Assembly (NCBI GenBank): GCA_021014325.1
Contig: CM037472.1
Span: forward strand, 21,499,063-21,563,062
Reading direction: 5' to 3'
Length of the DNA: 64,000 nt
Source: Plazaster borealis
Lineage: Eukaryota; Echinodermata; Asteroidea; Forcipulatida; Labidiasteridae
In this document: one piece after another, positions 1-64,000 of the stretch
Numbering within the stretch: the stretch's first letter is position 1
How the letters are laid out: each line of letters starts with the position of its first letter
Notes under the pieces: model-generated
Seen by the model: the letters and a program-made list of their open reading frames with translations, nothing else
Told to the model about the DNA's origin: nothing
The model's database searches: none
Translations under genes and position numbers: made by a program

Positions 1-51
1 ATGAAGGCTGCACTCAAAGGGGAAGAAGAAGAAACGGATTGGTCTGTACTG
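1..51 (+). CDS. Left-gene exon, partial at the window edge
   Basis: Open from base 1 (MKAALKGEEEETDWSVL) up to a GTTGAG donor at 52. The window happens to start on ATG, but the acidic run reads as internal protein, so this is more likely the 3' part of an internal exon than a true start. It ends in phase 0, which matches the next exon. The donor is weaker than consensus. Confidence 0.5.
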
Positions 52-29347: not shown

Positions 29348-29418
29348 TCTTTGGGTGGGATTTGAACCCAAGACCCCTGCCATTTTCTAGAGCAGATGTT
29401 TTACCACTAGACCACCAG
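29348..29418 (-). repeat. tRNA-like repeat
   Basis: The reverse strand starts TGGTGGTCTAGTGGTAAAAC and has GGGTTCAAATCCCACCC, resembling a Gly/Glu/Asp-type tRNA. It abuts the MITE at 29418-29570, with no mature tRNA fold evident. Confidence 0.55.
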
Positions 29419-29570
29419 GGGCCGATTTCACAAAACTCTTCCTAACTTAGGGCTAGTCCTAGGCAATGCTAAGAGATAGGACTACTCTTAAGTACGCCAG
29501 TCCTAACTTAAAACTATTCCTATCTCTTAGCATTGCCTAGGTTTAGGAAGAGTTTTGTGAAATCGACCCC
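29418..29570. mobile_element. MITE family D, copy 2
   Basis: GGGGCCGATTTCACAAAACT at the left and TTTTGTGAAATCGACCCC at the right. Almost the whole element folds back (GGCAATGCTAAGAGATAGGA pairs with its inverse). Confidence 0.8.
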
Positions 29571-31243: not shown

Positions 31244-31523
31244 GTTGCGGTTTCACCATGCCTTGAGAAACACCAACTGTGTTTTAAGTGCCTGCTACTA
31301 AAACAATCTGGATTGCTCTACTGATGTAACCTGGGATCTTTTTGGAGAGCTATGGAGGATAGGGACTGTTGTGATCAAGGTGGTGACAGAGGCCAAGAGA
31401 GCCTGACAGCAGGGGCGGGGACTGGGACAGTGTGTACTGTAGCTGAGATGGACGAAGGCACAGCTGTCTTTATCACTTCCAGCACACCGCTGTCATCAAC
31501 GGACAAGCCTGAGAGTAAAAAAG
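31244..31523 (+). CDS. Gene X exon A (first coding exon of the long transcript)
   Basis: A strong acceptor (CTTCCTCCCTACAG) opens the exon, so it is internal with part of the 5' UTR. A short ATG-Pro-stop lies at 31258. The main ATG is at 31352, with an in-frame stop upstream at 31322. It encodes 57 residues starting MEDRDCCDQGGDRG and ending STDKPESKK, then one G before GTTTGT (a weak donor). Gly/Thr/Ser-rich, no domain. Confidence 0.6.
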
Positions 31524-34500
31524 GTTTGTCTTTTTAAGTTTATGTGTCCATTCTTGAGGAGGGTTGCTGAAATGTTTCGTCTGTCAGATTCTGTTATTTG
31601 TTGAAATTGATATTCAGGTTGGCACTTTCAGTGGCTTTCGTCAATGATAGATGCAATATTAATATGAGTGTAATTTGTTACAGTTTGTTGGGTTTTGAAT
31701 AAAATTCAAGCTGACAGCTGTCATTTGAGAATGGGATGAGCATTGAGTGCTTTGATTAAAAAGATTCCTGCTTTTTTTCATCTTCAAAGAAGCAAACACA
31801 AAAATCACTTTAAATATGTTTATGTTAGAGTTAAGCACATTTTGTGATTAATTTCATTTTTCATGAATTGCTACTGTGACTCTTCTCTTGACCTACAAAA
31901 ATACTTAAACAATTATAAAGTACATATCAGGTAACATACATCATACACAGTCCAACTGTATTTGGGGACCAAAACTGAAACCAAACTAGAAGGAATTATT
32001 TGAACTAGTGGTTCAGGCATCCTTCGTTCTATGTACAATTAGACATTTGGTTTTGAATACTGAACGCTGCTGGTGGAAACATGAACCAAAGTTCCCTGGA
32101 GAAAGTTGATGGCATTGTTGTTTTAAGATCTGTTTTGTGCATGAAGTCTTCAAGTCAAATACATTGTTTATTGTATTTATTGTACAGTGTTTATCAGGAT
32201 CCAGATGTTTAAATTGTTATTTTCAATATAATGTGCAATAGGCTCGATGTACTGTATTACACTAGGAAGTATTACATGGGGATACATGTGTAAATGATGA
32301 AATTTCCATATTTCTCATCAAACTTAACTGAAATTCCTTCTTGGTCTTTAAGTTTGGGTTTCATTCTACTAGTTTTCTGCTTCATCTGTACACATTTTGT
32401 ACTTAAAAACATGACAAATATTCAATTATGTCATGCATACAATAGGCCCTACATGTCAATTGTTTGCATACAAAAACTGTTGAGAAATTAATAACAGTGT
32501 ATGTTTCATGTTCGCATGGACGGGAACTTTGTGTTTTTGTTCATCCACAAAAAAAGTTACAAATGTCTGCCTTTCAACTTTGTGTAAATTGAATCGGAAC
32601 CCCAATTTCAGCCAAGAAGTAGATCACAGAATTAGTGTTCGATCCTGGAATTCTTACATATGTATAATACACAAAGGTTTATCAATTGTTGTTCTCACCC
32701 CCAGACATGATGGAAGCAATCACTGGTTGCCGGTCACAGGGCACCACTGACCTCTTTCACGACCCCAACCTACCCTTATGATCTGTTGATTTAATGATAT
32801 TGACCGATAAGCCTACAATGGAACAGACGAATGTCATAAAGGCAGAGTCGGAAGTTTTTGAACTAGTACTTTAACTCTATTTGAAAGATTATTATCTGGT
32901 ATTTGTTGTTCGATCTGTAGTGTTCGCTGCTCACATTAAGTCTTGTTTTTATAGTCAGTAAGGTTCTGAGATCTAATATATCATGGTCATTTTGGATGTT
33001 GTCAGCTGAGAACGGAAGGATACTTTTACTAAATAGAAACATATACAACAGATGATGTTTCCTGAGACCTACATGTAAAACTTGCTGGGTCAGCTGTCCT
33101 GGGTTCTTTTTTACTCTTTGATCAGTTTGTGGTGGTAAGTGCTGAAATAGATGTCTAGAGACGATTCAAACAAAGTCATCATGACAAAAATACACTGATG
33201 GAAACACGCTTTGAATGAGCCCTTGACAAGGTGTCTGGTACATAAATAACTTGCTTGGTCACTCTCAATTTTGAATTCTTAAGACTGGATTTGTTGAAAA
33301 AGCAGGCAACCTTTTTTTTTTTAAATTATGGACACTGCAAACTCTTTGGCTTATATTTATGGGGTCACATTGTATTTGTGGCAGTATTGTTTTTTTAGAG
33401 TTCATTGTCCAACCCACTTGTCTGATCTGTGAACTTGTACTTGTTCCACCGGCATGACAAATATGAATTTACAAAAGACCCTTGTGGAGTGAACTAAATT
33501 ACCCTTGAACCAAGCTAGTGTTTCCCCTGTACCATCCCAAGGGTGAAGCTTTAAATAACAGCACTGTGCTGTACATCATCACTCTAATGAGGCCTCACAA
33601 TCCTATAGCTATGTAATAATCAGACGCTCACCATGATTTCATGCAAACTTGAGCATTTTCATTTGTCACTTCTGTTGAAAGATCTGTCACACGGATGAAC
33701 AAATATTGAAATGGAAATGTGTACAAACGTTTGTCAAGTACATACATGTACTCATGCATGTATGACTCATTAAAAAATTCACTAATTTTAAAGATGTTGG
33801 TTTTCAGTTGTTCTTAATAGTGAATGTATAATACATTTACTTGTTAGAAGACGGCATTTGAAGCAAAACACCTGAAAAATAACTTAACAAGTATTGTTAG
33901 AATTAGAAAGGAGTTTTACTTTTACTTTCATATTTTTGCTGGTGTTTTGTATGGTCTTAAAATCAACTCTCCTCTGTGCGTGTGAATGTTGTGACCACAT
34001 ACATGTACACTGTTATTTAGCCTCTACCTAACTTGATGATTGTTTATCCCTCTGAGCACATTCAGAAAATAGATTGGTAACAGCCCGTTTCATAATGAAC
34101 TTGAAATGAATACCAGGCTCCATCATGATAAGGGGATTGGAATATTTGATACTCTGGGAGTCTCTGTTAGTGTATTCCACTGATGAAAGAGAAGCTGACC
34201 ACGCTAGGGTTGGAAGGTTTTACAGATTTCCCTCTCGGACTTAAAATATCACTGAATCAGCGCAACAAATTTGGTCTTGCTTAAATTTTAAATTGTCTTA
34301 AATTGCTGAAACACTCTGTAGAAAGTTTTGCAACTAACTTCTGAAAGTTGGATTCAAATGCTGATGTTGTTGACACAACAAGCTTCATATATTTAGGACG
34401 AAGTTACCAGACAGTGATGGCACTTTTGATGTAATTATTTTTCACATTCATTTTAAAGGGATTGTAAAAGTAAGCTGTGAAAATTTCATTTCAAAAGTTG

Positions 34501-37500
34501 GTAGTGTTTTTTGCGATATTGCTGAAACTCTGGAGCGGTTATGTCCACATAAGAAAAATAACCTGCAATTGGAATACACAATCTGAGAAACGTTACTGTC
34601 AGTGACGCTTCTCAGATTCAAATTTTTTGTGATAAAAAGTTATATCTTTTTCCATAACCGCAGTACTTCGAAGTGAAAAGTTTCTCAAAATGCATTAAAC
34701 TATCCAAAGCTGACTGTACTTCTTACCAAGTAAGTTTTTATTGCCATTCATTTTCAGAGTCATTACCAAACGTATACAGACCATTTATAAAAGTCAAATA
34801 TCAAGTAATACACCACAAGGGAAACCGACTGGGTAAATTTTAAATAATTTTAAAGGTTGAAAACCAACTTTACCCTTAGTAAGCATTCAAGATCATAAGT
34901 GGATAATTCTTTAATGGGATCCTGCCTCGTTTCCTAACAAATTAATTCATCAAATCCCACCTTTGACTCACTCGAGAACAGGCTGCATTGGTCACCAGCA
35001 ACATATTCACAAGAGACCACAGGTTCTTGTTGCTCGGAAGTTTCACAGGGCCAGAAATATTTCTTACAAGGCCTAAAATGTTTTCCTTCTTTTTTTATAT
35101 TTGCTGAACTTCTTGGTGGAGGTTTGGAACAGACCTCTTGCATTGCCCGCCATCACTGAGGTCAAACAATGAAAATGTGCACGCGTGTACGCACCACGCA
35201 CAACTCTCAGGCATTGATAGGTCTTCATTGACCTCAGTGAGGGCGCTGTTGGTGATTTTTACGTCATGCAAGGAGTCTATAGAAAAGTTTGAAAAACATA
35301 CATGTACACTAAATGCATTTGTTTTTCGTAAATTTTCAAAAGTATGTGTTTGCGATCAAAACACTAGACTGCAGGACTTAATTGGTTGTGGGTTTACTGG
35401 CTAAGTGCTAACCTTACTGGACTCTGGACAGTGGTCCAAGTGGGTAGTTCCTGGAGAGCTCTGAAAGGATAGCATTTGTGCAGATAATTTAAGATATGTT
35501 TTGGCACTTTGTCAGCTTTGATTTGAATAAATCCAAGCCAAGCAGAAGTACATGTAGGTGACAAAAATGCTGATAGATTTTGTTTCATGGATGCCCAACA
35601 TAAAAAGTTGCTCCTCTCCAATCACATACATGTACCTTTGTAATTGAATGTGTTAAGACCTTGGTATAAAGGTATTTCCAAATAGGAAGTTCCAAATGCC
35701 ACATTAATTGATTTGATCGTAATTAATTAGAAGGACATCAAACTAGATCATGGTCTCATTTTTTTGCGCTTTCTTTATTGTGCTTTGATTTATAAATCTA
35801 TTCTTCCTGTATTAATCATACGACATGACCTGGGTATCTATCACCTCAAGCCAAGTTGACAAGATCAAGTTTACGGGTTCCGTTTCCATAGCATTTGGGA
35901 TTGGGATTGGATTTGTAACCGTCCGGTCGGCTGAGTTAGTCAGGAAGACAACCCTGGGAAGGGGGAATGTGTCATCAGAGTGCGGGACCGAGCTGGAAGC
36001 CAAATATAGGATCCACAGAATCGGTTTTGGGATGTTACGAGGAGGAGGTGTTCTGAGGACTCGCTCGACACCGCTTCAAGCAAGATGCTGCAGTACGCAA
36101 AGTTTGCCAAGCTGAAAGTCTTACTGAAGCACATTAATGCCAATAGAGACTGCCCTCCCACTGTGGTTGCCATCGGCGATTGCCGGCAGTCAACAATGGG
36201 GAATTGTTATGGTTGTGGTTCTCGTGGTGAGGAGACCAAGAGGTTGGAGGATGACAGAAAACAGGTTGCTGGTGAGTGATTGTCAAAAGGAAAAAAGAAT
36301 CTTAGAAATAATAGGAAGTTTTTTTCATGATTGATTTTTTGACGAGTGATCGTAGAAGAGGGTTTGTGGTTAATTTTTTATGTTTACAATAACTATTGAA
36401 ACTCTAGTTATTCATTTCATGTAAACAATAATAAGCTGTTCATTTTGAAAGACTTTCAGCCATGATTTACTTTTAAGTCATTTTAAAGAATAGTAAAAAG
36501 TTTACTGAACAAGTTTTTTTGAAACAAATTCCCACATGCAGTGTAAAAGGTGTCCTAAAGTCTTTCATTTATTACTTGAAATATAAGCAACTCTTCCGCC
36601 TGACTCAAAAAAAGTTGCCTTGAGTGAAAGGATATATGACTGAATTGAATATTCATGATTTAGCAAAATGTTTGAACTGGTATTTTTTTCAAGTATTTGA
36701 AATGAAAAGAAACTTCTAATGAGGGGGAAAAATAGGTTAATGTACTGTAAACATACTTTCCTTAACCGACCTACAAGGATATTTCATTGAAAGTGTGTTT
36801 TAATTGAATAATTGATGATGGGATTAGGCTTAGTTGTGTTTGGGTCTCATCCAGGAACTTGAGGAGGACACAAAGGCTGGTGTCCTCTAATGAACGGATT
36901 GAGAGCTCCGAATCAATGCTCATTAGTTACGCTGACTGCTCTGGAGTCTCCGGGTCAATCCTGAGGGAACATGACATTTCCTAGAAGGGCTCTTCGGTTT
37001 GGGCTTTACAGTTAGATGCGTGAGAGGAAAGTTAACATACAGTGGGAATCTTCCGAGAAATTTGTAAGGTTAGAATCTTTGGAATGCTGTGTAAGTTCAT
37101 TTAATGTATAGCTTATGTGCCTTATAAAACATGACCTTTTTATTATGCAATTTAAGAACATCAATGTTTGGATAATGTACTTAATGTTGAGTAATTGTCA
37201 GTAAGATCTACGTGTACAGGCATTGCTGAGGACAGTTGACTGTATTTTGATCATTTACATTATGCATCAGTTTCAAATTGATTGCCTCTTCTGGGTAGAT
37301 TGGTTGTTGTTGTTGTTATTGTTGTCGTTGTCGTTGTTGTCGTTGATGTTGTCGTTAATGATGTTTTGATGTTGTCGTTGATTATGTTTTGATGGAAATT
37401 CGTTTTGATGTTGTCGTTGATTATGTTTTGATGTTGATGTTGTCGTTGTCGTCGTTGATGTCATCGTCGTTCATGGGAATTGAATATTCATGTTTTGGAC

Positions 37501-45818: not shown

Positions 45819-45849
<31 letters not shown>

Positions 45850-48800: not shown

Positions 48801-51800
48801 CATGACAAAGATGTTGACACCATTCATGTAATTAACACAGAGGAAAGTGACCCTCATAAAAAGATGTTTTTGTGCTGTTTTCATAAACAGCACCTTGAGT
48901 TATAAAATGGAATTAATGTACTGGTACACTTTAGCACCAAGGAGTAAACAATTTGTTTTGTTACTTTTTATCTTTGGTTCAAGGCGGAACTCAAAGACCT
49001 CGAACAACATTTTTCTTGTGGTTTTAATAGCCAGATGTTTTTCCTTCAGTTCAATTCATTGGCACAGAACTGAGGCATGAATGGAAAATAGCCGGGTGCC
49101 TTTTTGGGTAAAATGTTAATTGGTATTCATGCTTGCAGTTTGTTTTCTTTTTACGTACATACAGGGAACTTGACCAAAATGGTGGAAGCATGATATACAA
49201 TAACCTAGCATCGTCTTGGGCTTTGGCTTTGGCTTTGGCTTAATCCATCTGCCTGTACCAAAAATGCACGTTTTCAAAATAACTAACAGCCTAATCCGTA
49301 GTCATTTCAAAAAGGGCCCTAAATGTACATTATGTAGGTACTGTACATGTATGACATGTCAGTTTTCATTTCAAATGTTTTAAATTTATTGTGGGATCCA
49401 GTGTTTAAATTTGTTAAATCTCTTATGAGCATGTGTGTAATAGTAAATACACTACATTGTGAACTTCAGTCCTTAAAAGAACATCTACTCTGTATGGACA
49501 TTTAGATTACATTATCTATAATGTTCTGTAAAAATGAATAATTATTATCCAATTTGACATAGTTCATTCTTTTGTATGAAGTTACATCATAGCTGTGGTA
49601 TTGGTAATCCCTTGCTGAAAGGCCATGGTAAACTAGTCGTACATTGTACATTGTACAGTACATGTAAATCAAATAATATTGATTGCAGACACTCTGCATA
49701 ACATTCAGCGATAATGGGCGATCTGTGATGCTCCCGTGTGCTTCAGTGAAAAAAAACACGGGCTATGATTGAAGCAGGTGCAACCATTACGCAGTAGATG
49801 AACAGGTTGAGTGTTTCATAGATGTACATCATGTACTGATCTCACACTGAGTGGGTCTGCCAGTACAGGAGGGATTCTGAGGATGATAATTACGTCAGCG
49901 TAAAGGTATGGCAGATATGACAATACACTTTTATTTAAACTGTGCTCTGATGGAGTATTCCACTCGCTATATACACTGTATGTCAGTGAAAATTATTAGT
50001 CATAATATGGAATGTCGGAAACGCATGAGTTGTATCCCATTATTGTTGATTATTCAGCAATGATCAAAATTGGAATCCTAATGGAGCGAGGACAATAAAT
50101 AACAGATGAAGGAGTGTATTGTGGGTTTTTGTTGTTATTAGTGTTATATTTATACAGTTATCCGTCTAGTAAAACTGTCATTTAGGATTTCAAGCATGAA
50201 TACAGTTTCCAATTTCCAATTAGTTTATCTGGTCACATTGGCAGTGGATCCTTCCTCCATGATTAAAGTAACTTATTTTTGTGTTTGATGTCATATCTTA
50301 TCATAATCTTACTTACATATGTACATGTACTGTAGTACACATCTATTGTTCATAAAACAAACACTTTTACTGTGCAACATTAAACACTGTGTACATTAGT
50401 GATCCTCGTAAACCAGCATCTTGTGTACACTGTACCTATGTATGTTGTGTTTTTGTGTTTTTGTTTTTTGTTTTTTACAAATACATGTAAGTGAAATACA
50501 TCAAAGCAAAAGGATAATGTGTACACTTAAATCCTCTGAATTTGATACATTCCCTGCATTGTGAAAACGACATGGATTGTTCTCAAATTATGGCAATTAT
50601 CTCCAATCTCCTTACTTATTTACATGAAATTCAGTTAATCACATGGGACAAGACAGAAGTTTACCAACGAGGTGTGTTTGTTGGCACTCTTCCTTGTCTA
50701 AGAAGCACAAGAGAATGAGCGGCGAACATTATTTTAGCAACTCGTTAAAATAATCAGCTACAAAAGAAAATCTGTTGAACAGAATATCATGATAAACAGT
50801 AAAAAACATGTATCGTCAGACAATTTGCACAATGTCAGTTGGACAGTAATTGTTGATTTCCATTCCCAGAACCAGCCATATTTGTATAGGAGCTATTTGT
50901 AGACTTTGGAATCACTGGTAATGTTCCATGTTTTTCTAGCTGATCAACTTGAATTCCATTGTTGACCTTTGAGGTCAAGAGAGGGTTTTAATGATCGATC
51001 GATCCTTTCAATGAGTCATGGCCGAGGAAGCCATGTGATTGGCCACCTATCATGACTGCCTTTTGTTTGTTTGTTTGAATTCAAAAAAGCTCATGTTTAC
51101 CCTGACGCTGATGGCAGAGCATTACATAAATAACGGTTCTGGTCATGAGCTTAAACCCAGGGTTGACTGGAATAACAATTGGTGTCGAGGCAATGATTTA
51201 TGGCAGGGTTAATACATTGAAAGATTTGCTGTATTAAGTCGACATCTACTTGAGAATGTCCAAGAAGAAGTTGTTGATTGTTTTTGGACCTCATGAGTTA
51301 GTTTTATTCCTCATTTTACTTTCGGATTGTTTTTGGAACTCATGAGTTAGTTCATTCCTCATTTTACTTTTGGATTGTTTTTGGACTCATGAGTTAGTGC
51401 CATTCCTTATTTTACTTTTGGATTGTTTTTGGACTCATGTGTTAGTGTCATTCCTTATTTTATTTTATGATTGTTTTTGGAACTCATGTGTTAGTCGATT
51501 CCTCATTTTACTTTTGGATTGTTTTTGGAACTCATGTGTTAGTCGATTCCTCATTTTACTTTTGGATTGTTTTTGGAACTCATGAGTTAGTTTCATTTCT
51601 CATTTTACTTTGGGATCGTTTTGAACTCGTGAGTTATTTTCATTCCTCATTTTACTTTGGGATTGTTTTTGGAACTCATGAGTTAGTTCATTCCTCATTT
51701 TCCTTTAGGATTGTTTTTTTGGAAATCATCAGTTTAAGAGTCATTCCTCATTTTAAAACTATTGTGGTAAACGAATGGAAGAAACGTTTTTGGATTTGTG

Positions 51801-54800
51801 CAGAGGTGGAGAAGCAAGAATGAATGGGTTGGGTGATCAGACAGGAAATGCAAAATTGCAATGTTCATGTGTTGTGAAATGCAATGTTCATAAAATGAAA
51901 TGTACTTTGTTATAAAGTACCAGACCAGTGTGCATAAATATAAAATTGTCATTCCATTCATGTTACTGTCATGTGTAATGAAATGTGATATTCATAACAA
52001 ATATAATGTTGGACTATACACGTGCATGCACCATCAAATGGGTACGTACCATGTACATGGATTTGTTTAAAACTGCTAATTTTGTCAAGGTGATTCCTTT
52101 GAGTAAATTGCTTTTTTACAAAAATGGTAATACACTCTATTGCTGACTAGTACACAAGTGATTTTGTCAATGACCAACACAAGCAGTACCTGTATTGATT
52201 CTTCAGAGTTTCTTATCCCCTCATCAATATGTAAGACCCTCCTATTATAAAAATGGTTGAATCCAATGACTCATCCTTTGCTTTGTGCATATATAGGGCA
52301 CTCGCCCTGCAGGACCAAAGAACTACTCTTTGTTTCGGAGGGTATTAAGTTTGATTCCATGGGCATATTTTCCCTTTCATCTACAGCCTGGAAAAAATAA
52401 ATTCAAAATACAATTTTTTGGGTGACCCTAGGGGAAAGCATTACTCTGGGATGTATTTTTGTGTAGGATTATGCAAATGTTATTAAAACTTTTTCGGGGA
52501 AGTAATTAATAAATGAGCTTGTCAATCCTTATTAAGTTTATAATTAAGTGCAGGTCTTTTAGAGTTTGGTGAGTATACACCTTTGAACGGAGGGCAGCTT
52601 TTTAGGACGAATTTCCTAGTGCAAGGATTGCTGAGAGAAGTCTAATATAGAATTCAGTTTATTTATAGCAGAGAATTACATAGTGGCATTTTGGAAAGGT
52701 TAAAGAAAATGTGCAAAATGTAAAATTATGGACATTAGTGTACATGTACATGTCTCACACACAGTACATGTATGCAGATCCTCATCAAGAAATGTACATT
52801 TTGTGCCGTACTTAATATAAAAAACCCCACAAAAAACGGGTGTTGTGTTAAATGCTCAGATCATTTTAAGAAAGCCTTTTTACAGAATTAGTTGAACTCT
52901 TTGTATACATGTAGATGTCAGGTTATGGATTTATTTATGATTTGACACTGTTACTATAGACTGTGCAAGTCTCGCATGAAGTCCAACATTTTTGGAACAC
53001 TTTGCTCCCACGTACATGACTGCTTGAAGGAAAGAAATTCACTGGTCCCAATGTTCGAGTACGCGTGAGATTCGCACAGTCTAATTGCAATTACTGTTAT
53101 TAGTCTGCAGCTTGGCTTCACATCCTACATAATGCAATGTACATTGTACATCATTATTTATTGTATGATGCTCTGAAAAATTACATTAAAGGTATCGTAC
53201 ACGTTTGGTAATGACTCAAAACAAATATTAGCATAAAAACTTACTTGATAACAAGCAATGGAGAGCTGTTGATAAAAACATAAAACGTAGGAAGCGACTC
53301 CCTCTGAAGTAACGTAGTTTTTGAGAAAGAGGTAATTTCTCACTAAAATAATAAAAACTTCTTGCAAGAAGTTTTTATTCCTGTATCTGAAAGCACACAA
53401 ATTTGTACAACAAGGGTGTTTTTTCTTTCAACATTTTCTTGCAACTTCGATGACCAATTGAGCCCAAATTTTCACAGGCTTGTTATTTTATGCATATGTT
53501 GGGATACACCAAGTGAGAACACTGGTTTTAATATGTAGGCATAATGTGTCAAATATCACTAACCCCGGCACATATAATGTACATTGTAAGTACCATAAGT
53601 GTACATGTATATGATATTCGGATTAATATATACCTGCATATTGTGTCAAATATCACTAACGCTTAAACAAACTTATAAAATTGTATGCCAGTGAACAGTA
53701 AGTTTTTATATTTCATCAATTCTTTTCTTGCCTCCATCTCGCTCTCATTCTCACATTACATACATGTATCAATGTTACCCATGCCCTTTCTAATTAATTA
53801 ACGACTGAAGAGCCAACGATCCCTATAATATAGCACCGCAATGCATTACCTCATCGCAGCAACGTGGCCGCACAAAATGTATGCAGGTCACTCCCATTAG
53901 CCGCCGGCCAGGTCACCAACCGGTTAACGGAAATAACATTGTGCCATTGAACCGTGCTCAATCGTGCACAGGGAACAGTGAATGAAATTGTAATATTCGA
54001 TTTGGAGAAGTTCCAACGTGGAACTGGCAACCCTGGGAATAAATGATGTAATGCCTGCATCTGCAGGGCACCGTGTGTTTGTGCACAGGTGTACGTATAA
54101 AAACCCTGACATTTGTGGATTTCTCCGTTCCTCTTTCGTTGAGTTTTGGTTTGAGCTGAACGTGGGAGATGCTCTGCTCGATGAAATTTTGTTTCTGCAA
54201 ACAATTTATTTGTATTAAGTACCTTGGCTTTGGATTGTCTGTCTGTGTGCGGAGAGATTGGCATTTGGACTTTTGATCTGTTGTGTTTAGAATTTCTGAC
54301 GATTGTTGAACCATGCTTGGAATTGTTCTTCCGTTTGGTAAATCAAAAGGGAAGAAGAAGAAGAAAGTTGAGATGAAGCACCTTACTGGTAACTATCGTC
54401 TTTGTTGATCTGGGAATGCATTAAATTCAACGAACAGTTTGCTATGATTTGTTTATTTTGTTTTGTTAAATATTGGAAATAAGTATTTAAAGGCAGGGTA
54501 TACTTTTGGTAATTGTCAAAGACCAGTATCCTTACTTGGTGTATCCCAACATATGCCTTAAATAACAAACCTGTGAACAATTTGGCTCAATTGGTCGTCA
54601 AAGTTGCAAGAAAGCAAAATTTAAAAAACCATTAAAAAAACACTCTGTTGCATAGACTCACTGTTTTCAGATGCCCGAGAAAGGCTTCATGACTGAAGCA
54701 TTTCTCGGATTCAAATTTTGGGGTGAAAAATTACCTCTTTGTTTAAAACTACATTATTTCAAATGGGGTGATTTCTAACAATGTTTTATAATATCAACAG

Positions 54801-57800
54801 CTCTCTGGTGCTCTTTACCAAGTAAGTTTTTTCTGGTCATTAACTTACTAAAAGTACATCCTGCCTTTAAATGTTACTTTTAGTTTACGACAATTGAACT
54901 TGCCTCTTCTTGGGGTGCAATTTTCATTTTTTGACAAGTTTTGTTGTGTTTTTAGGGTTGTTTATGTGTACATTACGCGACTGATTAGCTGTCAGATAAT
55001 GAAATTGTTTTTCCTTGGCATCAGAACAATGCTGTATTGCAATCGCTCTTCATTTCCTTTGCTGTGTGCAGTACTTTGCAGTCATCATTCACTCTGGATG
55101 TATTTTTCTGTATGATTTAACTGCAGAGCAAGATAGTCTACATACTGATCATAAATGAGATAATGTGCTTGTTATGTTAAACCATGGAGCTGTACATACT
55201 GGAAAAAAAGACAGGAAGCTGTTTTTGCTCTTGTCTACCCTAACGCCAATCAATTATTTATGTAGCCAATTAACCCCTTGATTAAATAAGCAGCGCTTGT
55301 CAGCCACTATTGTGAGCTCAGTCATTTGTTTGGGGAATGTGTGGCTGATAATAGGAAGGAATCAGTGTAAATAAATAGAGGGTAGACATCCTGGTGATAA
55401 AGTTAACAACTTCCACCCCGTCAGGATTAGGTTGTTTGGGTTAGGGTTAGGGTTGTTGCTGGACACTGGTGTTTCTGGGTCATCGTGTTGAAACTGTTAT
55501 AATAGCTGATTTAGAGGTTTGGATGTTTATTATTACTGCTGATGTGTTTGTTAAAAAAAGCTGGTGAAGAAGATTGTGGTCAGTGCATTGCACAATGAGC
55601 ATGTGATGAAAAAATTACTGGGAATTGGAGTATAAATTCTGGCAACAAAAAATTGAGTGATTTCAAAGAAAATTTGTATGGCTATTCTATCCATGTGTAC
55701 ACGTAATGTAAAAAAGTAAAATATCTGTTCAATTTAAAATTAAATTTACGCATGCACTTGTATCAAGCGGTATGCATCTACTCGCTGGGATACGAACATA
55801 CATAACCCATGTACTGCCGTCAACCTTATAAATGTAAAAAGGAAACACACTTGTCATTTTCCCTCCTCCCCAAAATTGAAGGACAAATCAAAGAAAATAG
55901 AGCACAATACAGTTAGCTGTTGGGTCCTGCTGGGCCTTGACCCATGCATGGTCACAGTTCCCATAAATACTTGCATGGTAAACCAACAACCAATGACAGT
56001 TCTTCTAAGAAGAGAAAAAAAGGTGTGACAGAGAAGCGTAAACAAACGTCTGATGCTTTATTCTTTTTTATTTGTCTAGGTTAGTGTCGCACTGCGGGCC
56101 CCAACACTTTATTTCTTTATTATTTCTTTATTTCAACCAGGAAGAAACTGGTTGAATTCGAACATCCTTATGGGACTCCAGTTTGTTTTGTTCTTTTAAA
56201 GGCCCTGTACACTATTGGAAAGATCGAAAAACACAAATGTTCACAGATTCACACACAACTTACATGATTTAAAGTAAGTAATGGTTGAAAGGGTTCCTTA
56301 AAATATTTCTGCCTAAAATGCTATTGTTTCTGAGAAATGAGTAAAACAATAGTTTTTATCACGCGCGATATTTTGAAAAACAGAAAACACATAAGGTCTC
56401 TTTTCACTATTTTCTTGTGACCAATTGAGCTCAAATTTTCATAGGTTTGTTTGTTCATGCGTATGTTGAATCACACAAACAAATTGTGGACACTGATTTT
56501 GAGCTGTTACCAAAAGTGTACAAAAAAACCTTTAAGTCACAAGGGAAAATCCAAGCATGCAAACTGAGAGCACAGGGAGTTGATGTTGATGTCCTCACAT
56601 CAGGGTCAACTTTATTACTGCCAAATGCCAGCTGGATACCATTGCACCTCATTGCACTTTTCATTTTAAAAGCCAATTCTCTTTTAAGTTTTGTTTTGTT
56701 TGGGTTTTTTGGGGTTTTTTTGTTGGGGGGCGAGAGGGGTGTTATAAGGATCACAGTTGACATGTATCGCAAATTTAAATAAGGGAACTTCCATTTGCAA
56801 GTTTGCATAAACTCCGCAATATCAGGTAGTGTGTACTTGTTTAAAAGTAGGCCTCCATGCACCTTACTACTAGCAATTGTTTTAATCTTTCATGGATGTT
56901 AAATGTTGATTACCAGATCCATTTGGTGTCCTATATTATTACATGTCTACGTTTAGATTTGTAGGTGGAAATATTGTTATAAAAGAGATGACCAAACATC
57001 AGGCTGGGAAAATAATACGAGTCAAAATACGCTGAAATAGTTCTGATAGTCCTTAAACACGCCAAGTGTGATTTTTATAACTTTTAATTCATTACTTCCG
57101 AAAGTGTGAAAGTCCCACAGTGCTGTGATATTTTTTTTCTATAGTCTTCATCAGAATGGAACCATTACCTCCTCCTCCACTGTAGCCGATTTGTTGACAT
57201 AACCTAGCCTTCAATCCATGTCTTCTATATTTCATGCTCTTTCAGCAACCATGTTTAGATAAGCTTGTGGGAAAAACATTTTGAAAGAACGGGAACTGCT
57301 GTATATATACCCTACCTGTTGCCACACACAAGCAATTGCTTCCTGTGGCCACCAAACCAAACCAAACCAAACCCCCAAAAAACCTTGACAAAGAATTCAC
57401 TTTTGTTATCTCAAGTTCAGGTATTTCGTATGCATGGGTTTTTTTTTAGTGCAGTTGCGCACATTGGCATGTGGGCAATTGCATTATTCATACTGAGGGG
57501 GTAGTGGCTGGCTGTTGACTCAGTGTGGATGTATGTCCAAATTGGACTGAGCTTTATTTCCTTGGTTAGTCTCCGAATCAGCTGGAAGCCTGGAGTATTA
57601 CTTGTCTGGTCCAAGAAGAATAAAACGTAAATGTTGTCAACCCAAAACAGCTGCTGCTGAAATCATGGATTTCTCAGGGTACGTACATGTAAACTTATTC
57701 AACTCATCCCTCCAAAAGTTAGAACATTGTGGCGGAGTTTGAAAAAGTGGTTGAGTCTCCGCTTGATATTGAAGAACAAAGGAGCAGTTGTTCCATTGCA

Positions 57801-60800
57801 GTTGTTCAGGTATTTCTTTTGACAAGGTGTACATGTGTGTGGTGAGCTAATTGTACCCGTGATACGTGAGGCCCAAGGCAAGAGGCCCATGTTCAGTTAG
57901 GACAGTAACCCAGTCCTACAACCAGTCTGTCTGTAAGAACAGCTGGTATAGCTTAATACTGGAGTACCACTTGGGATGTTACTGTGTGTGCGGGTGTAAA
58001 TTGTAACTTGGCACTGTTACTAGATTTATTGGATTTTTATATATACGCTCTATTCAAGTCATGTCTGTGGCGATGTTGTTGGTACAGCTTCGCATGAGGA
58101 TTGAAAGGGAACTTTTTCCTGCAGGTAATTTTCTAATGATTTTGGAATTATTTGATTGGATGATTTTTGTTAGCTTGATCATGTCATAGAGAAAGGACAG
58201 GATCATGTGCAGTCGTCGTCTTACATTTGTTTACCAAGAAGACAGATTAATGAACAAGTTAAACCAATTTGAAGTGCCATGTACAGGCACAGCTAGACAT
58301 TGAGTGGAAGTTTTTGATTTGTTTGTTTAACTCTTGATTTGTTTGTTGGTTTGTTAAACAATTAACTCAAAATTAAAATGAACTTGAAACTCAAAATAAA
58401 TAACACCACTGTGTGACTTTGATTACTGAAATATTTCTAATGTTCATAATGGAGGTAGAAATAGACCTCACTCAGTCGGTGGTCAGAGAATAGGTAGGAC
58501 TGTGAAGTTGGTATACTAAACAGTGAAATTAAAGGGTAATTACAGTTACATAATTCATTGGAAATAAATTCAAAATGCAGACTTTTTTTGAAGATAAAAA
58601 TTCTGTTAAACGAACATGAATCTGATTCGTTGCCTTTTTCAATGAAATGTTAACACTTTCAAAACTTAAAAAGTACTGCGAAAAATTACAAATCTTGATC
58701 TCTCAGAAGTCAGTATTTTGGAATTCCTGACACAAGTTCGTAATTTCTCTTCCATATGCTGTTGTGTGTCTATGAGCAGTCTTTATTTCACGACACAACT
58801 TTCACTGGCAATGCAGATCTATCAAAGTCCAGATGACCGTCATATTACTTCCTGGGTTATCCAACAAATTTGTAATCTCAGTGGTATTTAACCATTGGCA
58901 GTCGTTCATCATCAGCCCTACTATCACTCAAAAAAGCCATAAATAATCAACATGATGAAATCTCATTATTTGTGTGGTGCGTGACTAGGCTTCCATGCAT
59001 GTGGGTCGAAAGCACGGTAAGGGCATTTCCATCCCTGCATGTAGGGAGGACATTTCTTGATGTGTTGTTGGATCTATATATAATTGTTATGGGAAACTGT
59101 GGTCACTCGTTGTAGCAACAGTGTCAAGAATCACTGACGCAAATCATGTCTATGGTCAGAAGAAGTTCCTTCCTGCGTGATATTAAACTTGTCGGAGGAG
59201 ATTCTAAATGAGGGCAAAGGGTGAGCTGTTACCAGGCCTGAACTTTTATTGTGGATGTGACAAGTCCCATTTCCCCGCGAAAATGGCACTTTTATTGGGA
59301 AAATTGAAATGCTTTGAATAGCTTCAAGGGTCACCAAGACCAGGGTTAGGGCAAACGAAGTGATGGACTGGGTGGCTTTGGTGATATTCTAGGCCTGTAC
59401 TACCCACACCATTAGTTGACACTTGATTTTTTTCAACAAGTGTATGCCTTTTTCTTGAGTTCATTTTCCTCTCTTCAGTTTGAACTCCCAATTTTTGACT
59501 TGAGTTTATATTATCATGATTTGGCAAAACTATGCATGTCTCAAAGTTCACTGCTAGCATTGAACTTAATTGGATGCCCATGATTCAGAGGCTGGAGATT
59601 TGTTTAGCCCACCTCCTATACATGCAATGGAGCAACCTCCAAAAATGTATTAATGGAATAATTAGGAGAAGGATGTTGAAACTGGATCGAGGCTGAGGTC
59701 AGAATCTATACCTGAGTCTTGACCTTTAGCGCCTCTATTTGTTACAGCCATGGCTCAGGTTTCTTTGTTTATAAAATATTATTGAGGGGAAATATTAGTC
59801 TGGTGTTATATTCCCCCAAAATAACAAAACAAATTGTGAACTACATGTTGGGAGTCCATGTACATGATAGTAGATTGTACTGATTTTGTATTATGTAGAA
59901 CGTATTTCTACCTCTTTGTTTGTAGCACCTTTATAACAGTACCACCCCATCACTTCATGAGCTTGTTCTTTAATCCTAACATTCAATTTAAAGGGTCTGT
60001 AAACGTTTGGTAATGACTCTGAAAATTAATGGCAATAAAACTTACTTGGTAAGAAGTACAGCAGCTTTGGATAGTACATGTATAATGCATTTTGAGAAAC
60101 TTTTCACTTCGAAGTACTGCGGTTATGGAAAAAGATATCTCTTTTTATCCCCCATTGTGTATGCCAATTGCAAATTATTCTTCCTGGGTGGACAAACCGC
60201 TCCAGATTTTCGGCAATATTTCAAAAGCTACCAGTACCACCTTTTGAAATGAAATTTTCACAGGTTAGTTTTATGGTATATAGCCGGTCTACAACTATAT
60301 AGGATTGAAACAAACAGTGGGTTCCAATTACCAAACATATACAATCCCCTAAAAGGGTACCTAAAAATACTTACCTAAAAAGGTTTATTTTATCATTATT
60401 TACACTTTATTGAATTAAACAAATATATCAATTTTCTAATTGTAACACCCCCACCCAACCTTCTGGTAGTGTCATCAATTCCCACATAACTGGAATTCCT
60501 ACTTCACCCAACCAGACAGCAGACGGACATGTGGTTTGATTTTACCTGATACAGGTTGATTTAATTAGAATTCAGGAAATCAGGTCTGTGAGTTGTCACT
60601 TTTAAAATAGTGTGTATAGTTCATCATAGGGATATGATACATTACAGTGCGGATGGATTAGTATCACTATCAATGTTCAACGTGCTTGTCCTGTTGGTTG
60701 ATTGAAGGTATGGTCAAACCATGGTCAAACCTTGATCTGTTTGGTCAGACACCAAGATTGCATGTAGCATAGAGCAAGGACATAACGCAGTGACCAACAC

Positions 60801-63800
60801 TGCTTCTTTCACCACATCCAAAACGAGAGAAGGATATTTCCCAGTGAGCCAATTAAGTGTTGTCCCCTGTCTATGGATTTACTAGCTCAGTGTGTGCCAG
60901 TTTAAAACAATGATTTCTACGGTCCATGCTGTTATGTGCCATGTGTACGGTATGTGTTAAAACTTTCTGTCACCCTTGCATGTGATGTAGTTTATAGTGT
61001 ATGTCATACATTAGTCATCAAGAATAGTATTAGTATATAGCTGTAAGTGTAATGTTGGCATTTTTAATACAAATAATATCAGTTACATTTTTTAAAGAGT
61101 GTTTTTAAGGACATGTAGCTTTACGGCCTAGGTGTTCACTATGATTTTCTTAAATATACAATGGTAGTATTTTTTTTTCACTTGATATGGTTTTGTATTA
61201 TGAAACAAAAAACACAAGTTGTTTCCCAAAGTCGAGTGCCTGATTCTCCACTCAGCCATACAGGGCATTGGTGTAAAACAAACAATTCCTCAAAAAGTCC
61301 AAACTACTGGGCGTTGTTGTTATTTCCCAACTTGTCATCCACCTAGCCTTAGAGGTGTGTACATTACAACAAGGTTCCCATAGTGTCCAGTCCTGGTATT
61401 TCAACGCTCACATTACCCTCCTTCATCAGAGTTGTGGGACACATTCCTGCCATGTCCGTGCAGCGCTTGGTAACTGGTCACCCACTTGTTGTTAGAACCC
61501 CTCTTCTTTTCTTTTTAAACTGGAAGACTTTCATCTGGTACGGTACCCAAAGTAAACATACCTGTTCCTATTGCCAAAGGGTTGTTTTATTTTCACTCAG
61601 GCTGTAGTTACTGTTTATTTTGTGATTCTAGTAGAAAATATCCCTGTATTGTTCTCAGGATGTTGAAAGGTACACAATTTACTGATCAAGTAACAAGATC
61701 AGTTTCTGAGATATGTCACCTGCTTCACACAGTCAGTTCGGAACTTTGGATGACTGCAACACCACTATTGTTTCAAACAAAATCAATTTTGTTGCATCAA
61801 TTTTCTTGATTCTATAAGTTCATCATCTCATTTCATGGTTTTTTAGTTCCTTGTATGACATGTGTAACAAAGTTTCCAAAGAGTTGGTGTGGGTTACAAT
61901 TGTTTATACAACCTGATATTTGTAATGTCAGTGAATGTACGTGGTTGTTTATTGTCCTTCTGTATGATGTGTGGTTTGACCTGCCATTATTCACTCAATG
62001 AATGCTGGAACTTTCTGAATAGAATAGAAAAAGTGACAAACACACTTACATTTTGGCATACATGTCCATGTTTGGACCAAACAAATTCAATGGCAAAACT
62101 CCCACACATCTGCAAGAAACTATTATTAATTTTTTCTTCTTTCTCAAACGTAAGTGTTTTGGTGCATGCACCTGGTTCCATTCTTTCAGCAGAGAAATTC
62201 CACTAGATAACATATTTACTTTATAGAAAGTGGCCGAATTCAGCTCTTTCTCTGGTTTGTTATGAAAACACTTAATTTGAAAAATCACACACTTGCAATT
62301 CTCTAAACCACCAGTGTATCTACAAGGTAATTGGATAGTTTGTGTAATAAAGTACTTGTCTCTCAGTACCACAATGATAAGATAATAGACCCGTACTTCT
62401 AGAGCAAGAATTCCAGAGCAAGAATGGGCGGAAGATAGACCCTCAAGCTGTTCAGCAATCCCCAAGGTCCTCAACTCACTAAATACAAGGCAAACTTTAA
62501 TTCCACTCCAGTAGTGCCTAATTTACAGGCAACACCCCTCCAGCAAATCTCAGAGTTGGTTTTTATTATGAAGCACAGTGGGGATTTCAGCCACCAGGTC
62601 CATCAGGACAGACTGTCCTTTCATCTGTGGTGTGAGGAGGAATTTTGTGGTTAAAACCTCAAACATGATTTCTTGCTCTTGTAACAGTAGACCCTAAGAG
62701 CTTGCTTTTTTATTGATAAATTGCACAATGTTTTCTCAGGTGGGTTGGGGGGCTTTTGGCAGTGGATTCAGAAATGAAAATTCTTGCAATCACTTGTTGA
62801 GAGAGTGAGTTTAACTCAAAATGTGGAAGGGTAGTGAAAGATGTAACTTCGTAATGTATACCAAATTGTGTTGTATTTTGAGGTACCATGGTACATTTTA
62901 AATAAATATAATCAGTTTTACCTTTTTTGTCTTTGAAAACTTATTTATTCTTTTTCTAGGAAATTGAAAGGATAGGTTTCTTCAAAACCAGACTTGTTTT
63001 TTTTTTAAATAATGAACTTTCAAAACCAGTGGTTTACCATCTCCTTTGCCTTTACCTACATGTACATGTGGAGTATTAAAGTTATATAATTTTCAGGCTT
63101 GAAGTTCATCTTTGAGAGGGCAAGGCCATAGGCCTATATATTTTGCAAAAGGGAAAATCTTAAAGTCTATAGACAACTTTTGAAGGAGCACCAAGGCCAA
63201 GATCAGGGGAAACGGGAGGACATGGCCTCCGTGGCCTTCATGTAATTCCAGGCCTGAATTTGTGCAGTTCTGCTCAAACTTAGAAATGGTGTGTTTCCCA
63301 CTACCAGATCTGACACCCTAATGCAATTGTCATCATTTGTTTTCTTCTTGTCTCTTCTGTATACAGATTCCTCTATGGAAATAGCGCCTTCACTGATCAC
63401 ACTGTATGACAAGTATGCATCAGCAGACAGAGAACTCATGTCTATCCAAGAGAGTGAATCCACAGAGACGGAATCTCCCAACAGAACCAACAACGATGAG
63501 ATCATCGGCACTGAACAGGGAACAACAGGAATCAGGGTGTCTGAGGACCAGGAAGACAAGATGGCAGTACATAGTGGCGACACTGCAGAGTGTTTCATGA
63601 ACACCAGTGATGTCGCTGTTGTGAACGACCAGCCAGATGAAGAGACTGAGAATACTGAGGCGACGACGCCAAAATCCCCCAACCAAAGTTTTTTATACAA
63701 ACCTGCACAGCCAGAAGTGGAAAGTGATCTTGATATGAGCAAGGAGAGCATCAAACCAAGAAGTGGGAGCTGTTCGGCAATTTTGGATGAAGAAAGTACT

Positions 63801-64000
63801 AGAGCCAAGATGGACCAGGCGGAGCCTGAAATAACATGTACTATGGCTCACTCAGAGAGCAAATCTAATTCCTCAAGTCTTGACAAACACAGCCATCTAC
63901 CAAAACGCAAAAATGCTGCAACAACGCCGCCAGAAAAGACGGACAGTAACGCCAACCTGAGAAGTTTCCAAAGGACTCTGTCATTCGGCGCTCGATTGGC
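31244..64000 (+). CDS. Gene X: acidic Ser-rich protein with alternative N termini, partial
   Basis: Three candidate first coding exons (31352-31523, 36196-36271, 54313-54388) all end in phase 1 at a GT donor. The exon opening at 63367 starts with the two bases needed to complete a codon (G+AT, Asp) and stays open to the window end: 210 residues beginning SSMEIAPSLITLYDKYASAD. This shared part is rich in Ser, Glu, Asp and Thr, has no recognised domain, and ends in a basic/hydrophobic patch (NLRSFQRTLSFGARL) with a basophilic kinase-type site. The protein is probably a disordered scaffold. N-terminal choice would set membrane attachment. AKAP12/gravin is a candidate family on architecture only; a RhoGEF or other scaffold cannot be excluded. 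Confidence 0.6.
34448..34795. mobile_element. MITE family B, copy 2
   Basis: Starts TTTAAAGGGATTGTAAAAGT and ends TACCAAACGTATACAGACC. Shares CAATTGGAATACACAATCTG and TTTTTCCATAACCGCA with the other copies. Confidence 0.72.
35140..35260. repeat. Dispersed repeat copy (CACTGAGGTCAA palindromic)
   Basis: CACTGAGGTCAAACAATG is matched by inverted CATTGACCTCAGTG, and CTCAGGCATTGATAGGTCTT matches 13488-13507. The short ORF across it is not supported. Confidence 0.5.
35785..36085 (+). promoter_or_regulatory. Candidate promoter and leader of gene X exon B
   Basis: A TATA-like TATAAATC is at 35791. CpG density rises over 35860-36080 (TACGGGTTCCGTTTCC, ACCGTCCGGTCGGCTGAG, GACTCGCTCGACACCG) compared with the flanks. 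It lies just upstream of exon B. A long frame at 35825-36115 overlaps it in a different phase and is not taken as coding. Confidence 0.4.
36196..36271 (+). CDS. Gene X alternative first exon B, acylation-type N terminus
   Basis: ATG in context ACAATGG. Twenty-five codons, MGNCYGCGSRGEETKRL then EDDRKQVA, and a G left before donor GTGAGTG. Gly2 with Asn3 fits N-myristoylation, and Cys4 and Cys7 are natural palmitoylation partners (known from Src-family and G-alpha N termini; here inferred). An in-frame ATG lies upstream at 36085 (MLQYAKFAKLKVLLKH...), and use of that start would hide the glycine. The phase matches exon 63367. Confidence 0.6.
37296..37475. repeat. GTT/GTC trinucleotide-type tract
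   Basis: Imperfect TTG and TCG triplets, including TGTTGTCGTTGATTATGTTT twice. Purely low complexity. Confidence 0.9.
37780..37902. repeat. Degenerate GACTCGA-rich tract
   Basis: Many GACTCG, GACTGA and CTCGAC words in varied spacing, following the T24 run. CpG-rich compared with the region. Confidence 0.75.
39716..39866. mobile_element. Short foldback element with GGCCGT ends
   Basis: TAGGCCGTGTCCGAATTGGC at the left is matched by inverted GCTAATTCGGATACGGCCTA at the right, arms about 32 bp. It may have TA target sites. Confidence 0.72.
41106..41472. mobile_element. MITE family A, copy 2
   Basis: Starts TTTAAAGGTATCGTACACGT, ends AGCGTGTTCAGTGCCTTTTA, and has the central palindrome at 41264-41293. 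Confidence 0.78.
42926..43160 (+). repeat. tRNA-derived SINE (second family)
   Basis: A head like a tRNA (GGTTGGCTCAGTGGTTTC ... CAGTTCTAATCCCACCTCG), then CATGTGGATTGGGTTTTCAG and GGTTTTCCCTCCGGCATCT, and an ATG/TAA-rich tail. The overlapping 95-codon frame is the SINE body, not a gene. Confidence 0.65.
45345..45815 (+). repeat. Duplicated tRNA-like repeat
   Basis: Two modules, 45345-45500 and 45600-45815, each with GGTGATCCCC.GCTGCC, CCCAGGTTGTATC, CCAACATAGGG and a tRNA-like part. The first retains TAGCTCAGTTGGTAGAGCGC and GGTTCAAATCCCCCTTAGTC; the second is decayed. A (TA)n tract plus T and G runs follow at 45813-45860. Confidence 0.7.
45932..46035. repeat. Repeat shared with 6133-6240
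   Basis: GCGGTAACACCATGTGTAT, CTACTT.GCTG.GTAGATTT and AGAACTTGTCTTGCT occur at both places. The copy near 6133 sits just ahead of the left gene's last exon. Confidence 0.65.
51276..51760. repeat. 48-bp minisatellite, 10 copies
   Basis: GATTGTTTTTGGAACTCATG starts units at 51276, 51325, 51373, 51421, 51469, 51517, 51565, 51614, 51661 and 51709. Each ends ATTCCTCATTTTACTTTTG. The period is a multiple of three, which explains the Phe/Trp/Cys-rich ORFs. Confidence 0.92.
52957..53083. mobile_element. Short foldback element (TAGACTGTGC ends)
   Basis: TAGACTGTGCAAGTCTCGC at the left, GCGTGAGATTCGCACAGTCTA at the right: arms about 20 bp around a 90-bp centre. Confidence 0.62.
53185..53530. mobile_element. 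MITE family A, copy 3 (right end truncated)
   Basis: Starts TTAAAGGTATCGTACACGTT and has the palindrome at 53350-53379. It stops after GAGAACACTGGTTTT, without the CAGTGCCTTTAA end. Confidence 0.75.
54096..54103 (+). promoter_or_regulatory. TATA box for gene X exon C
   Basis: TATAAAAA in ACGTATAAAAACCC. It would place transcription start near 54126-54130, about 185 nt before the exon C ATG, with no splice signal needed. The surrounding 53850-54190 is richer in CpG than the flanks. Confidence 0.6.
54313..54388 (+). CDS. Gene X alternative first exon C, Lys-rich N terminus
   Basis: ATG in context ACCATGC. Twenty-five codons, MLGIVLPFGKSKGKKKKK then VEMKHLT, plus one G before donor GTAACT. It has the same length (76 nt) and phase as exon B. 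A short hydrophobic start followed by a Lys cluster could bind acidic phospholipids or act in nuclear import. There is no Gly2, so no myristoylation. Confidence 0.6.
54484..54873 (-). mobile_element. MITE related to family A, inverted
   Basis: TATTTAAAGGCAGGGTATAC at the left and TACATCCTGCCTTTAAATG at the right. Reverse of family A at AGTATCCTTACTTGGTGTAT and CAATTGGTCGTCAAAGTTGC. The centre is a different hairpin (CCGAGAAAGGCTTCATGACT and its inverse). Confidence 0.72.
55438..55455 (+). repeat. Interstitial telomere-type repeat
   Basis: GGGTTAGGGTTAGGGTTG, just under three TTAGGG units. Confidence 0.7.
56195..56530. repeat. Diverged family A-like MITE
   Basis: TTTTAAAGGCCCTGTACACT at the left, then TGTGACCAATTGAGCTCAAA and TTCATAGGTTTGTTTGTTCA. 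The right edge is uncertain. Confidence 0.55.
59988..60356 (-). mobile_element. MITE family B, copy 3 (inverted)
   Basis: TTTAAAGGGTCTGTAAACGT at the left and TACCAAACATATACAATCCC at the right. Contains TACTGCGGTTATGGAAAAAG, the inverse of TTTTTCCATAACCGCAGTA in copy 2. Confidence 0.75.
63367..64000 (+). CDS. Gene X large shared exon, cut by the window edge
   Basis: A long pyrimidine tract and ATACAG precede it. Two bases complete the phase-1 codon, then 210 codons stay open to base 64000. Composition is typical of disordered regions (Ser, Glu, Asp, Thr, Asn). Segments include APSLITLYDKYASADREL, QESESTETES, KSPNQSFLYKPAQPEVES and, last, NLRSFQRTLSFGARL. Both other plus frames are broken by stops. 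The antisense 201-codon ORF is its shadow. Confidence 0.72.

What the first reader, a model, noticed from the sequence alone, without database searches (positions are those of the whole stretch)
31352..64000. Three alternative first exons with different membrane-targeting N termini converge on one exon
Exon A (ends 31523), exon B (ends 36271) and exon C (ends 54388) each run from an ATG to a GT donor and stop in phase 1. The large exon at 63367 supplies exactly the two missing bases. Exons B and C are both 76 nt. The three N termini differ in kind: Gly/Thr/Ser-rich, MGNCYGC (acylation type) and MLG plus five consecutive lysines. Established: alternative promoters that switch N-terminal lipidation occur in AKAPs and G-protein regulators. 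Inferred: that these exons are really used.
Basis: partly seen in the sequence, partly recalled or inferred. Interest (0 to 1): 0.85.

Follow-up and report, generated by a model that had tools for sequence, protein, structure and literature searches.

The report
RhoGEF gene with alternative first exons
An animal gene for a cell-shape regulator (a Rho GTPase activator) seems to have two or three different starting exons that would give the protein different front ends; this is a plausible case of a known arrangement, still without RNA proof.

Summary
Traced past the window, 63367 joins ten further exons to 95123 in one open frame of about 1,480 residues with a RhoGEF (DH) and a PH domain: a Dbl-family RhoGEF, by recalled resemblance of PLEKHG1/2/3 type. 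Such ATG-to-donor frames are common by chance (26 on the plus, 19 on the minus strand of the intron). B and C stand out because database proteins of a relative hold both frames with start and donor kept (P0002, P0003) and because both lie in CpG-richer DNA (93rd and 95th percentile of the intron). Exon C is no better conserved than its adjacent intron. No splice was observed. Likely an alternative-first-exon gene; the lipidation switch is weak.

The parts
31244..31523 (+). Exon A: acceptor at 31244, untranslated part with in-frame stop at 31322 and a start-stop ATGTAA at 31324, coding from ATG 31352 (MEDRDCCDQGG...PESKK), second in-frame ATG 31448, donor after 31523 (phase 1, score 1.1)
   Evidence: single match in own genome; no relative found for its last 26 residues (weak test)
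36085..36271 (+). Exon B, coding part as I read it: ATG 36085 MLQYAKFAKLKVLLKHINANRDCPPTVVAIGDCRQST-MGNCYGCGSRGEETKRLEDDRKQVA, donor after 36271 (phase 1, score 6.7)
   Evidence: P0002 in frame from 36013 to 36276; copy number in own genome not answered
36196..36271 (+).
   Evidence: MGNCYGCGSRG identical 11 of 11 in P0002
54096..54103 (+). TATAAAAA element 217 bases before the ATG of exon C; possible core promoter
   Evidence: TATAAAAR occurs 8 times on + and 13 times on - in 64 kb, so it means little alone
54313..54388 (+). Exon C: MLGIVLPFGKSKGKKKKKVEMKHLT, in-frame stop TGA at 54307 just before the ATG, donor after 54388 (phase 1, score 2.8)
   Evidence: P0003; single match in own genome
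63367..64000 (+). Common exon (continues to window coordinate 64379 outside the window), phase 1 in, phase 0 out; Ser/Thr-rich N-terminal region leading into the DH domain
   Evidence: P0001. Ten further exons traced at 64986-95123

Best explanation
The window holds the 5' half of a Dbl-family (DH-PH) RhoGEF gene of an animal, by recalled resemblance of the PLEKHG1/2/3 type. The body of the protein is coded by one common chain of exons from 63367 onwards. The DNA upstream (31-63 kb) holds at least two (B, C) and probably three (A) alternative exons with a start codon, each able to join 63367 in phase. B and C would each have their own promoter; A would be a spliced exon behind an unidentified upstream noncoding exon. 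Promoter choice thereby sets the N terminus: A acidic, B basic-hydrophobic (MLQYAKFAKLKVLLKH..., with MGNCYGCG inside), C hydrophobic plus polybasic. The likely consequence is a different subcellular address for the same GEF module in different cells. Shown: frames, phases, the body of the gene, counterparts of the B and C frames in a relative. Inferred: transcription, the splices, promoters, membrane effect, PLEKHG assignment.
For: Phases and junction codon; one open frame through the eleven common exons whichever start exon is used; RhoGEF PF00621 E 1e-39 and SOS1_NGEF_PH E 3.2e-10; the genome scan places a RhoGEF match at window 72312-72557. B: best donor among the ATG-to-donor phase-1 frames of the intron; P0002 matches 77 of 91 aligned positions from 36013 to 36276 with three indels, all of one codon (two of them inside 36085-36271), while 5' of 36013 the match goes on in two other frames. 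C: P0003 keeps start, frame and donor with one added Lys codon. CpG o/e before B and C 0.72 and 0.77: 93rd and 95th percentile of the intron, 87th and 90th of the window; three other ATG-donor frames lie at the 52nd, 10th and 58th, A and 63367 at 0.14 and 0.15 as expected of internal exons. A and C give a single match in the own genome. If the PLEKHG assignment holds, rat Plekhg1 is a precedent for a remote upstream start site (PMC8742872, passages seen).
Against: No RNA evidence. Exon C differs from P0003 in 4 of 25 codons, the adjacent intron in 3 of 18, so no selection is visible; in a substitution-only simulation 0.48-0.69 of neutral copies of C and 0.31-0.56 of the long B keep start, GT and open frame. 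The 24 codons before ATG 36085 differ in only 1, fewer than in the B coding part (10 of 62), so the conservation at B is not specifically coding either. The added codon of C lies in an AAG run. P0003 is a weak hit (E 3.5e-3). P0001-P0003 lie on three different contigs of unnamed source and may not be one species. CpG-rich stretches also occur elsewhere in the intron (37.0-37.8 kb, near simple repeats), and GC skew does not single out B and C (C 69th percentile; an unrelated frame at 58061 98th). Donor of A is weak (1.1). An upstream frame with two nested ATGs precedes the start of C, two precede that of B.
Confidence: 0.6

Rival explanations
1. Only one of B and C is a real first exon (most likely B); C is a chance frame lying in conserved regulatory DNA such as an enhancer or the promoter of a noncoding RNA.
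For: C is as conserved as its flanking intron (4 of 25 against 3 of 18 codons); 12 frames of the same intron have a donor as good; the added codon is in an AAG run, where slippage gives in-frame changes anyway.
Against: ATG preceded by an in-frame stop, CpG o/e at the 95th percentile and a TATA element 217 bases upstream; start and donor kept in P0003.
Confidence: 0.25
2. Exon B makes two proteins: a long N terminus from ATG 36085 and, by leaky scanning or a transcription start between the two ATGs, a short one from ATG 36196 that is myristoylated and palmitoylated (MGNCYGC). Compatible with the best explanation.
For: Both ATGs have A at -3 and 36196 also G at +4; MGNCYGCGSRG is identical 11 of 11 in P0002, the longest unchanged stretch after ATG 36085 apart from none longer that I counted by rule.
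Against: The frame before MGNC is open and kept in P0002 with a one-codon indel, as expected if the long form is the main one; a first ATG in good context lets few ribosomes through (general knowledge).
Confidence: 0.2
3. B and C are chance frames; the protein starts in exon A or within 63367 (ATG 63376) only.
For: Frames of this kind are common by chance; survival of start, GT and frame in one close relative is not improbable.
Against: At B the best donor among such frames, two of two indels in the coding part in frame (three of three from 36013) and a CpG-richer flank coincide; C also has such a flank and is kept in a relative.
Confidence: 0.15

Closest known systems
TIAM2 long and short forms (Dbl-family RhoGEF)
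   Same: One DH-PH GEF gene with two transcripts; the short form, unlike the long one, lacks N-terminal domains and myristoylation sites and was suggested to have its own promoter (PMC7408714, passages seen).
   Different: The TIAM2 short form loses whole N-terminal domains; here the body would stay the same and only the first 25-62 residues would change.
PLEKHG1 (rat)
   Same: By recall the closest subfamily; in rat heart the nearest CAGE cluster lies more than 100 kb upstream of the annotated start (PMC8742872, passages seen).
   Different: Nothing in those passages about coding alternative N termini.
Src-family/G-alpha type MGxC N termini (recalled)
   Same: MGNCYGC has Gly2, a small residue at position 6, and Cys at 4 and 7.
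   Different: Here the MG is probably not the start of the protein (in-frame ATG at 36085, frame kept in a relative).

Membership tests
Dbl-family RhoGEF | DH (RhoGEF) domain | tested here: met
   PF00621 E 1e-39, 137 bits, cut-off 27.6, residues 345-516 of the joined model; 57 PDB sequences at E up to 1e-5, best DBS 1.4e-31
Dbl-family RhoGEF | PH domain directly after the DH domain | tested here: met
   PF22697 SOS1_NGEF_PH E 3.2e-10, 40.6 bits, cut-off 27.7, residues 544-638
PLEKHG1/2/3 subfamily | closest relation to PLEKHG1/2/3 among RhoGEFs | not tested
   Recalled resemblance of DH-PH segments only; no PLEKHG sequence was compared and no tree was built
Alternative-first-exon gene | alternative exons end in a phase that fits the common acceptor | tested here: met
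   A, B, C phase 1; 63367 completes the codon and the frame stays open
Alternative-first-exon gene | each first exon has its own transcription start and is spliced to the common exon | not testable with these tools
   No RNA data; only CpG values and one TATA element as hints
N-myristoylated protein | Gly directly after the initiator Met | tested here: inconclusive
   MGNC at 36196, but an in-frame ATG at 36085 with the frame kept in P0002; A and C have no Gly2

The most novel reading that the evidence does not exclude
One RhoGEF gene with up to four N termini from three promoters plus a second start codon in exon B, of which one is doubly acylated and one polybasic, so that promoter and start-codon choice place the same GEF on different membranes.
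Probability: 0.12. Interest if true: 0.55.

Novelty: new member of a known kind. Interest (0 to 1): 0.35.

Why it matters
If true it is a clean natural experiment: the same DH-PH module with interchangeable short N termini, which would let one test how far a few N-terminal residues decide where a RhoGEF acts. The kind of arrangement is known.

Tried and rejected
Reading MGNCYGC as the established start of exon B: set aside because of ATG 36085 and the frame kept in P0002. Equal length of B and C as a meaningful sign: set aside, it depends on the same choice. Conservation as proof of coding for C: set aside, its intron is as conserved. Pfam hit Pyocin_S on the common exon (E 0.0094, 16.9 bits, cut-off 22.5) and the PDB hit of P0001 to an MHC chain (E 0.22): taken as chance. 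No Pfam or NCBIfam family for A, B or C (NCBIfam covers bacteria and archaea, so it says little). No PDB match for the common exon. Papers: ten searches, four of which found no paper; passages of two papers seen, the rest listings only.

Left open: whether the DNA of exon B is single copy was asked 11 times and never answered; likewise the bindin family and a paralogue search with the DH-PH protein.

Full report
What was checked. The four coordinates of the finding are correct. A 31352-31523, B 36196-36271 and C 54313-54388 end in phase 1 at a GT, and the acceptor at 63367 completes an Asp codon followed by SSMEIAPS.

What the gene is. The window is G000:C18:21499063-21563062 in an assembly of 560.6 Mb and 717 contigs. 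I fetched 80 kb downstream (1 kb of it overlapping the window) and 60 kb upstream and traced the gene by hand with simple splice scores: 63367-64379, 64986-65083, 71731-71800, 72360-72557, 77532-77693, 81851-81886, 83218-83334, 83685-83780, 84880-84991, 85894-86040, 92809-95123 (window numbering). The joined frame is open to a final stop for A, long B, short B and C (1511, 1516, 1479 and 1479 residues); the choice of 92809 as last acceptor and the absence of further small exons before it are not certain. Pfam gives RhoGEF (E 1e-39) and an SOS1/NGEF-like PH domain (E 3.2e-10) on the first 660 residues of the C form; the best-scoring solved structures are DBS, Trio and collybistin. A scan of the whole assembly found 40 RhoGEF matches (a lower bound by the tool's own note), one of them in this gene at window 72312-72557. 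That it is of the PLEKHG1/2/3 type is my recall of the DH-PH sequence, not a test.

Chance. In 31524-63300 there are 26 ATG-to-donor phase-1 frames of 60-300 nt with donor score 1.1 or more on the + strand, 19 on the - strand and 12.2 on average in 30 first-order resamples. With the donor score of C or better: 12, 8, 4.7. With that of B: 2, 0, 0.2, both being the two ATGs of B. The ten donors of the common exons score 1.7 to 6.8; A scores 1.1, C 2.8, B 6.7. Splice signal alone therefore singles out B only.

A relative. Three protein searches (all that were allowed) gave one protein each. The common exon: P0001, 201 aa, from 68 candidates; 168 of 191 aligned positions identical. Exon B: P0002, 107 aa, from one candidate, E 2.5e-24. 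Exon C: P0003, 45 aa, from one candidate, E 3.5e-3 (the identity of 52% printed there is over the composite query); it reads MLGFVLPFGKSKGKKKKKKVEMARLSGNYRLC..., that is exon C with four changes and one more Lys, and the read-through over the donor. The A piece in that same query found nothing, which says little, since short frames are often not in such databases. The three proteins lie on contigs of 1191, 2835 and 661 bases from ENA with no organism shown.

Exon B begins earlier. After a TAG at 36007 the frame of MGNC is open, with an ATG at 36085 (A at -3) 37 codons before MGNC. P0002 follows this frame from 36013 to 36276 with three indels, all of one codon: one before 36085, one between the two ATGs, one after MGNC. 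Further 5' the match continues in two other frames, so frame-breaking changes lie there. Amino-acid differences: 1 of 24 codons before 36085, 5 of 37 between the ATGs, 5 of 25 from MGNC on, none of them in MGNCYGCGSRG. The in-frame indels favour coding from about 36085, but the low divergence before 36085 shows that the conservation is not special to coding. I take ATG 36085 as the more likely start and MGNC as internal; a second start at 36196 remains possible.

Exon C. Start, frame and donor are kept in P0003, but 4 of 25 exon codons and 3 of 18 intron codons differ. In a substitution-only simulation with 5, 7.5 or 10% divergence start, GT and open frame survive in 0.69, 0.58 and 0.48 of 4000 runs for C, in 0.56, 0.42 and 0.31 for the long B and 0.68, 0.56 and 0.46 for the short B. 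So the relative is too close to prove selection. C has an in-frame stop at 54307, one codon short of its ATG, and a TATAAAAA 217 bases before it; TATAAAAR occurs 21 times in 64 kb, both strands counted.

Promoter hints. CpG observed/expected before the ATG is 0.72 for B and 0.77 for C: 93rd and 95th percentile of the intron, 87th and 90th of the window. Of the seven + strand frames with donor 2.7 or more and a purine at -3, two rows are B, one is C and four share three other donors; those three have CpG at the 52nd, 10th and 58th percentile. A and 63367 have 0.14 and 0.15. This fits B and C as first exons and A as an internal exon. Against it: higher CpG values occur at 37.0-37.8 kb, near simple repeats, and GC skew does not separate the exons from the other frames (B 92nd, C 69th, the frame at 58061 98th percentile). 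Exons A and C give a single match in the assembly; for B the question did not complete.

Mechanism. Most likely, promoter choice gives the RhoGEF different N termini. B begins with a basic, hydrophobic stretch, C with a hydrophobic start plus a Lys run, either of which may favour acidic membranes; A is acidic and has no such sign. That is inference. TIAM2 is a precedent for a RhoGEF whose forms differ in N-terminal myristoylation sites (PMC7408714, passages), and rat Plekhg1 for a remote upstream start site (PMC8742872, passages).

Verdict. Alternative first exons: likely (B about 0.75, C about 0.55 by my judgement). A switch of lipidation: not shown and, for B, made less likely. A new member of a known kind.

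Noticed in passing
window 1-3413 and upstream to about -6400: Exons of an ankyrin-repeat gene lie just upstream on the + strand (Pfam Ank for candidate exons at -6385 and -3560). Candidate exons inside the window (116-249, 1565-1673, 3253-3413) may be its end; the two of these three that were scanned matched no Pfam family.
   Followed up: partly
window numbering 139670-141001 (outside the window): An open frame of 444 codons downstream looks like a sphingomyelinase-type phosphodiesterase (Exo_endo_phos E 1.3e-4, 22.2 bits, below the cut-off 24.5; the name is recalled).
   Followed up: partly
window 35967 and P0002: In the relative the frame of exon B is open further 5' to an ATG (MCHQRVG...), whereas in the window that ATG opens a different, short frame (35967-36056).
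   Followed up: partly
window 54169-54276: An upstream frame of 35 codons (MLCSMKFCFCKQF...) with a second ATG at 54181 lies in the putative 5' untranslated part of exon C.
   Followed up: no
window 11568-12273, 18672-19210, 51276-51755: Tandem arrays with units of 130, 45 and 48 bases.
   Followed up: no
window 29347-29421 (-): tRNA-like match just over the Rfam cut-off (30.5 bits, cut-off 29), possibly a tRNA-derived short repeat.
   Followed up: no
G000:C683:31514-33424 and G000:C692:44246-46152: Two small contigs carry what look like the same pair of RhoGEF pieces at almost the same spacing (1692 and 1688 bases), perhaps uncollapsed haplotypes or a recent duplication.
   Followed up: no
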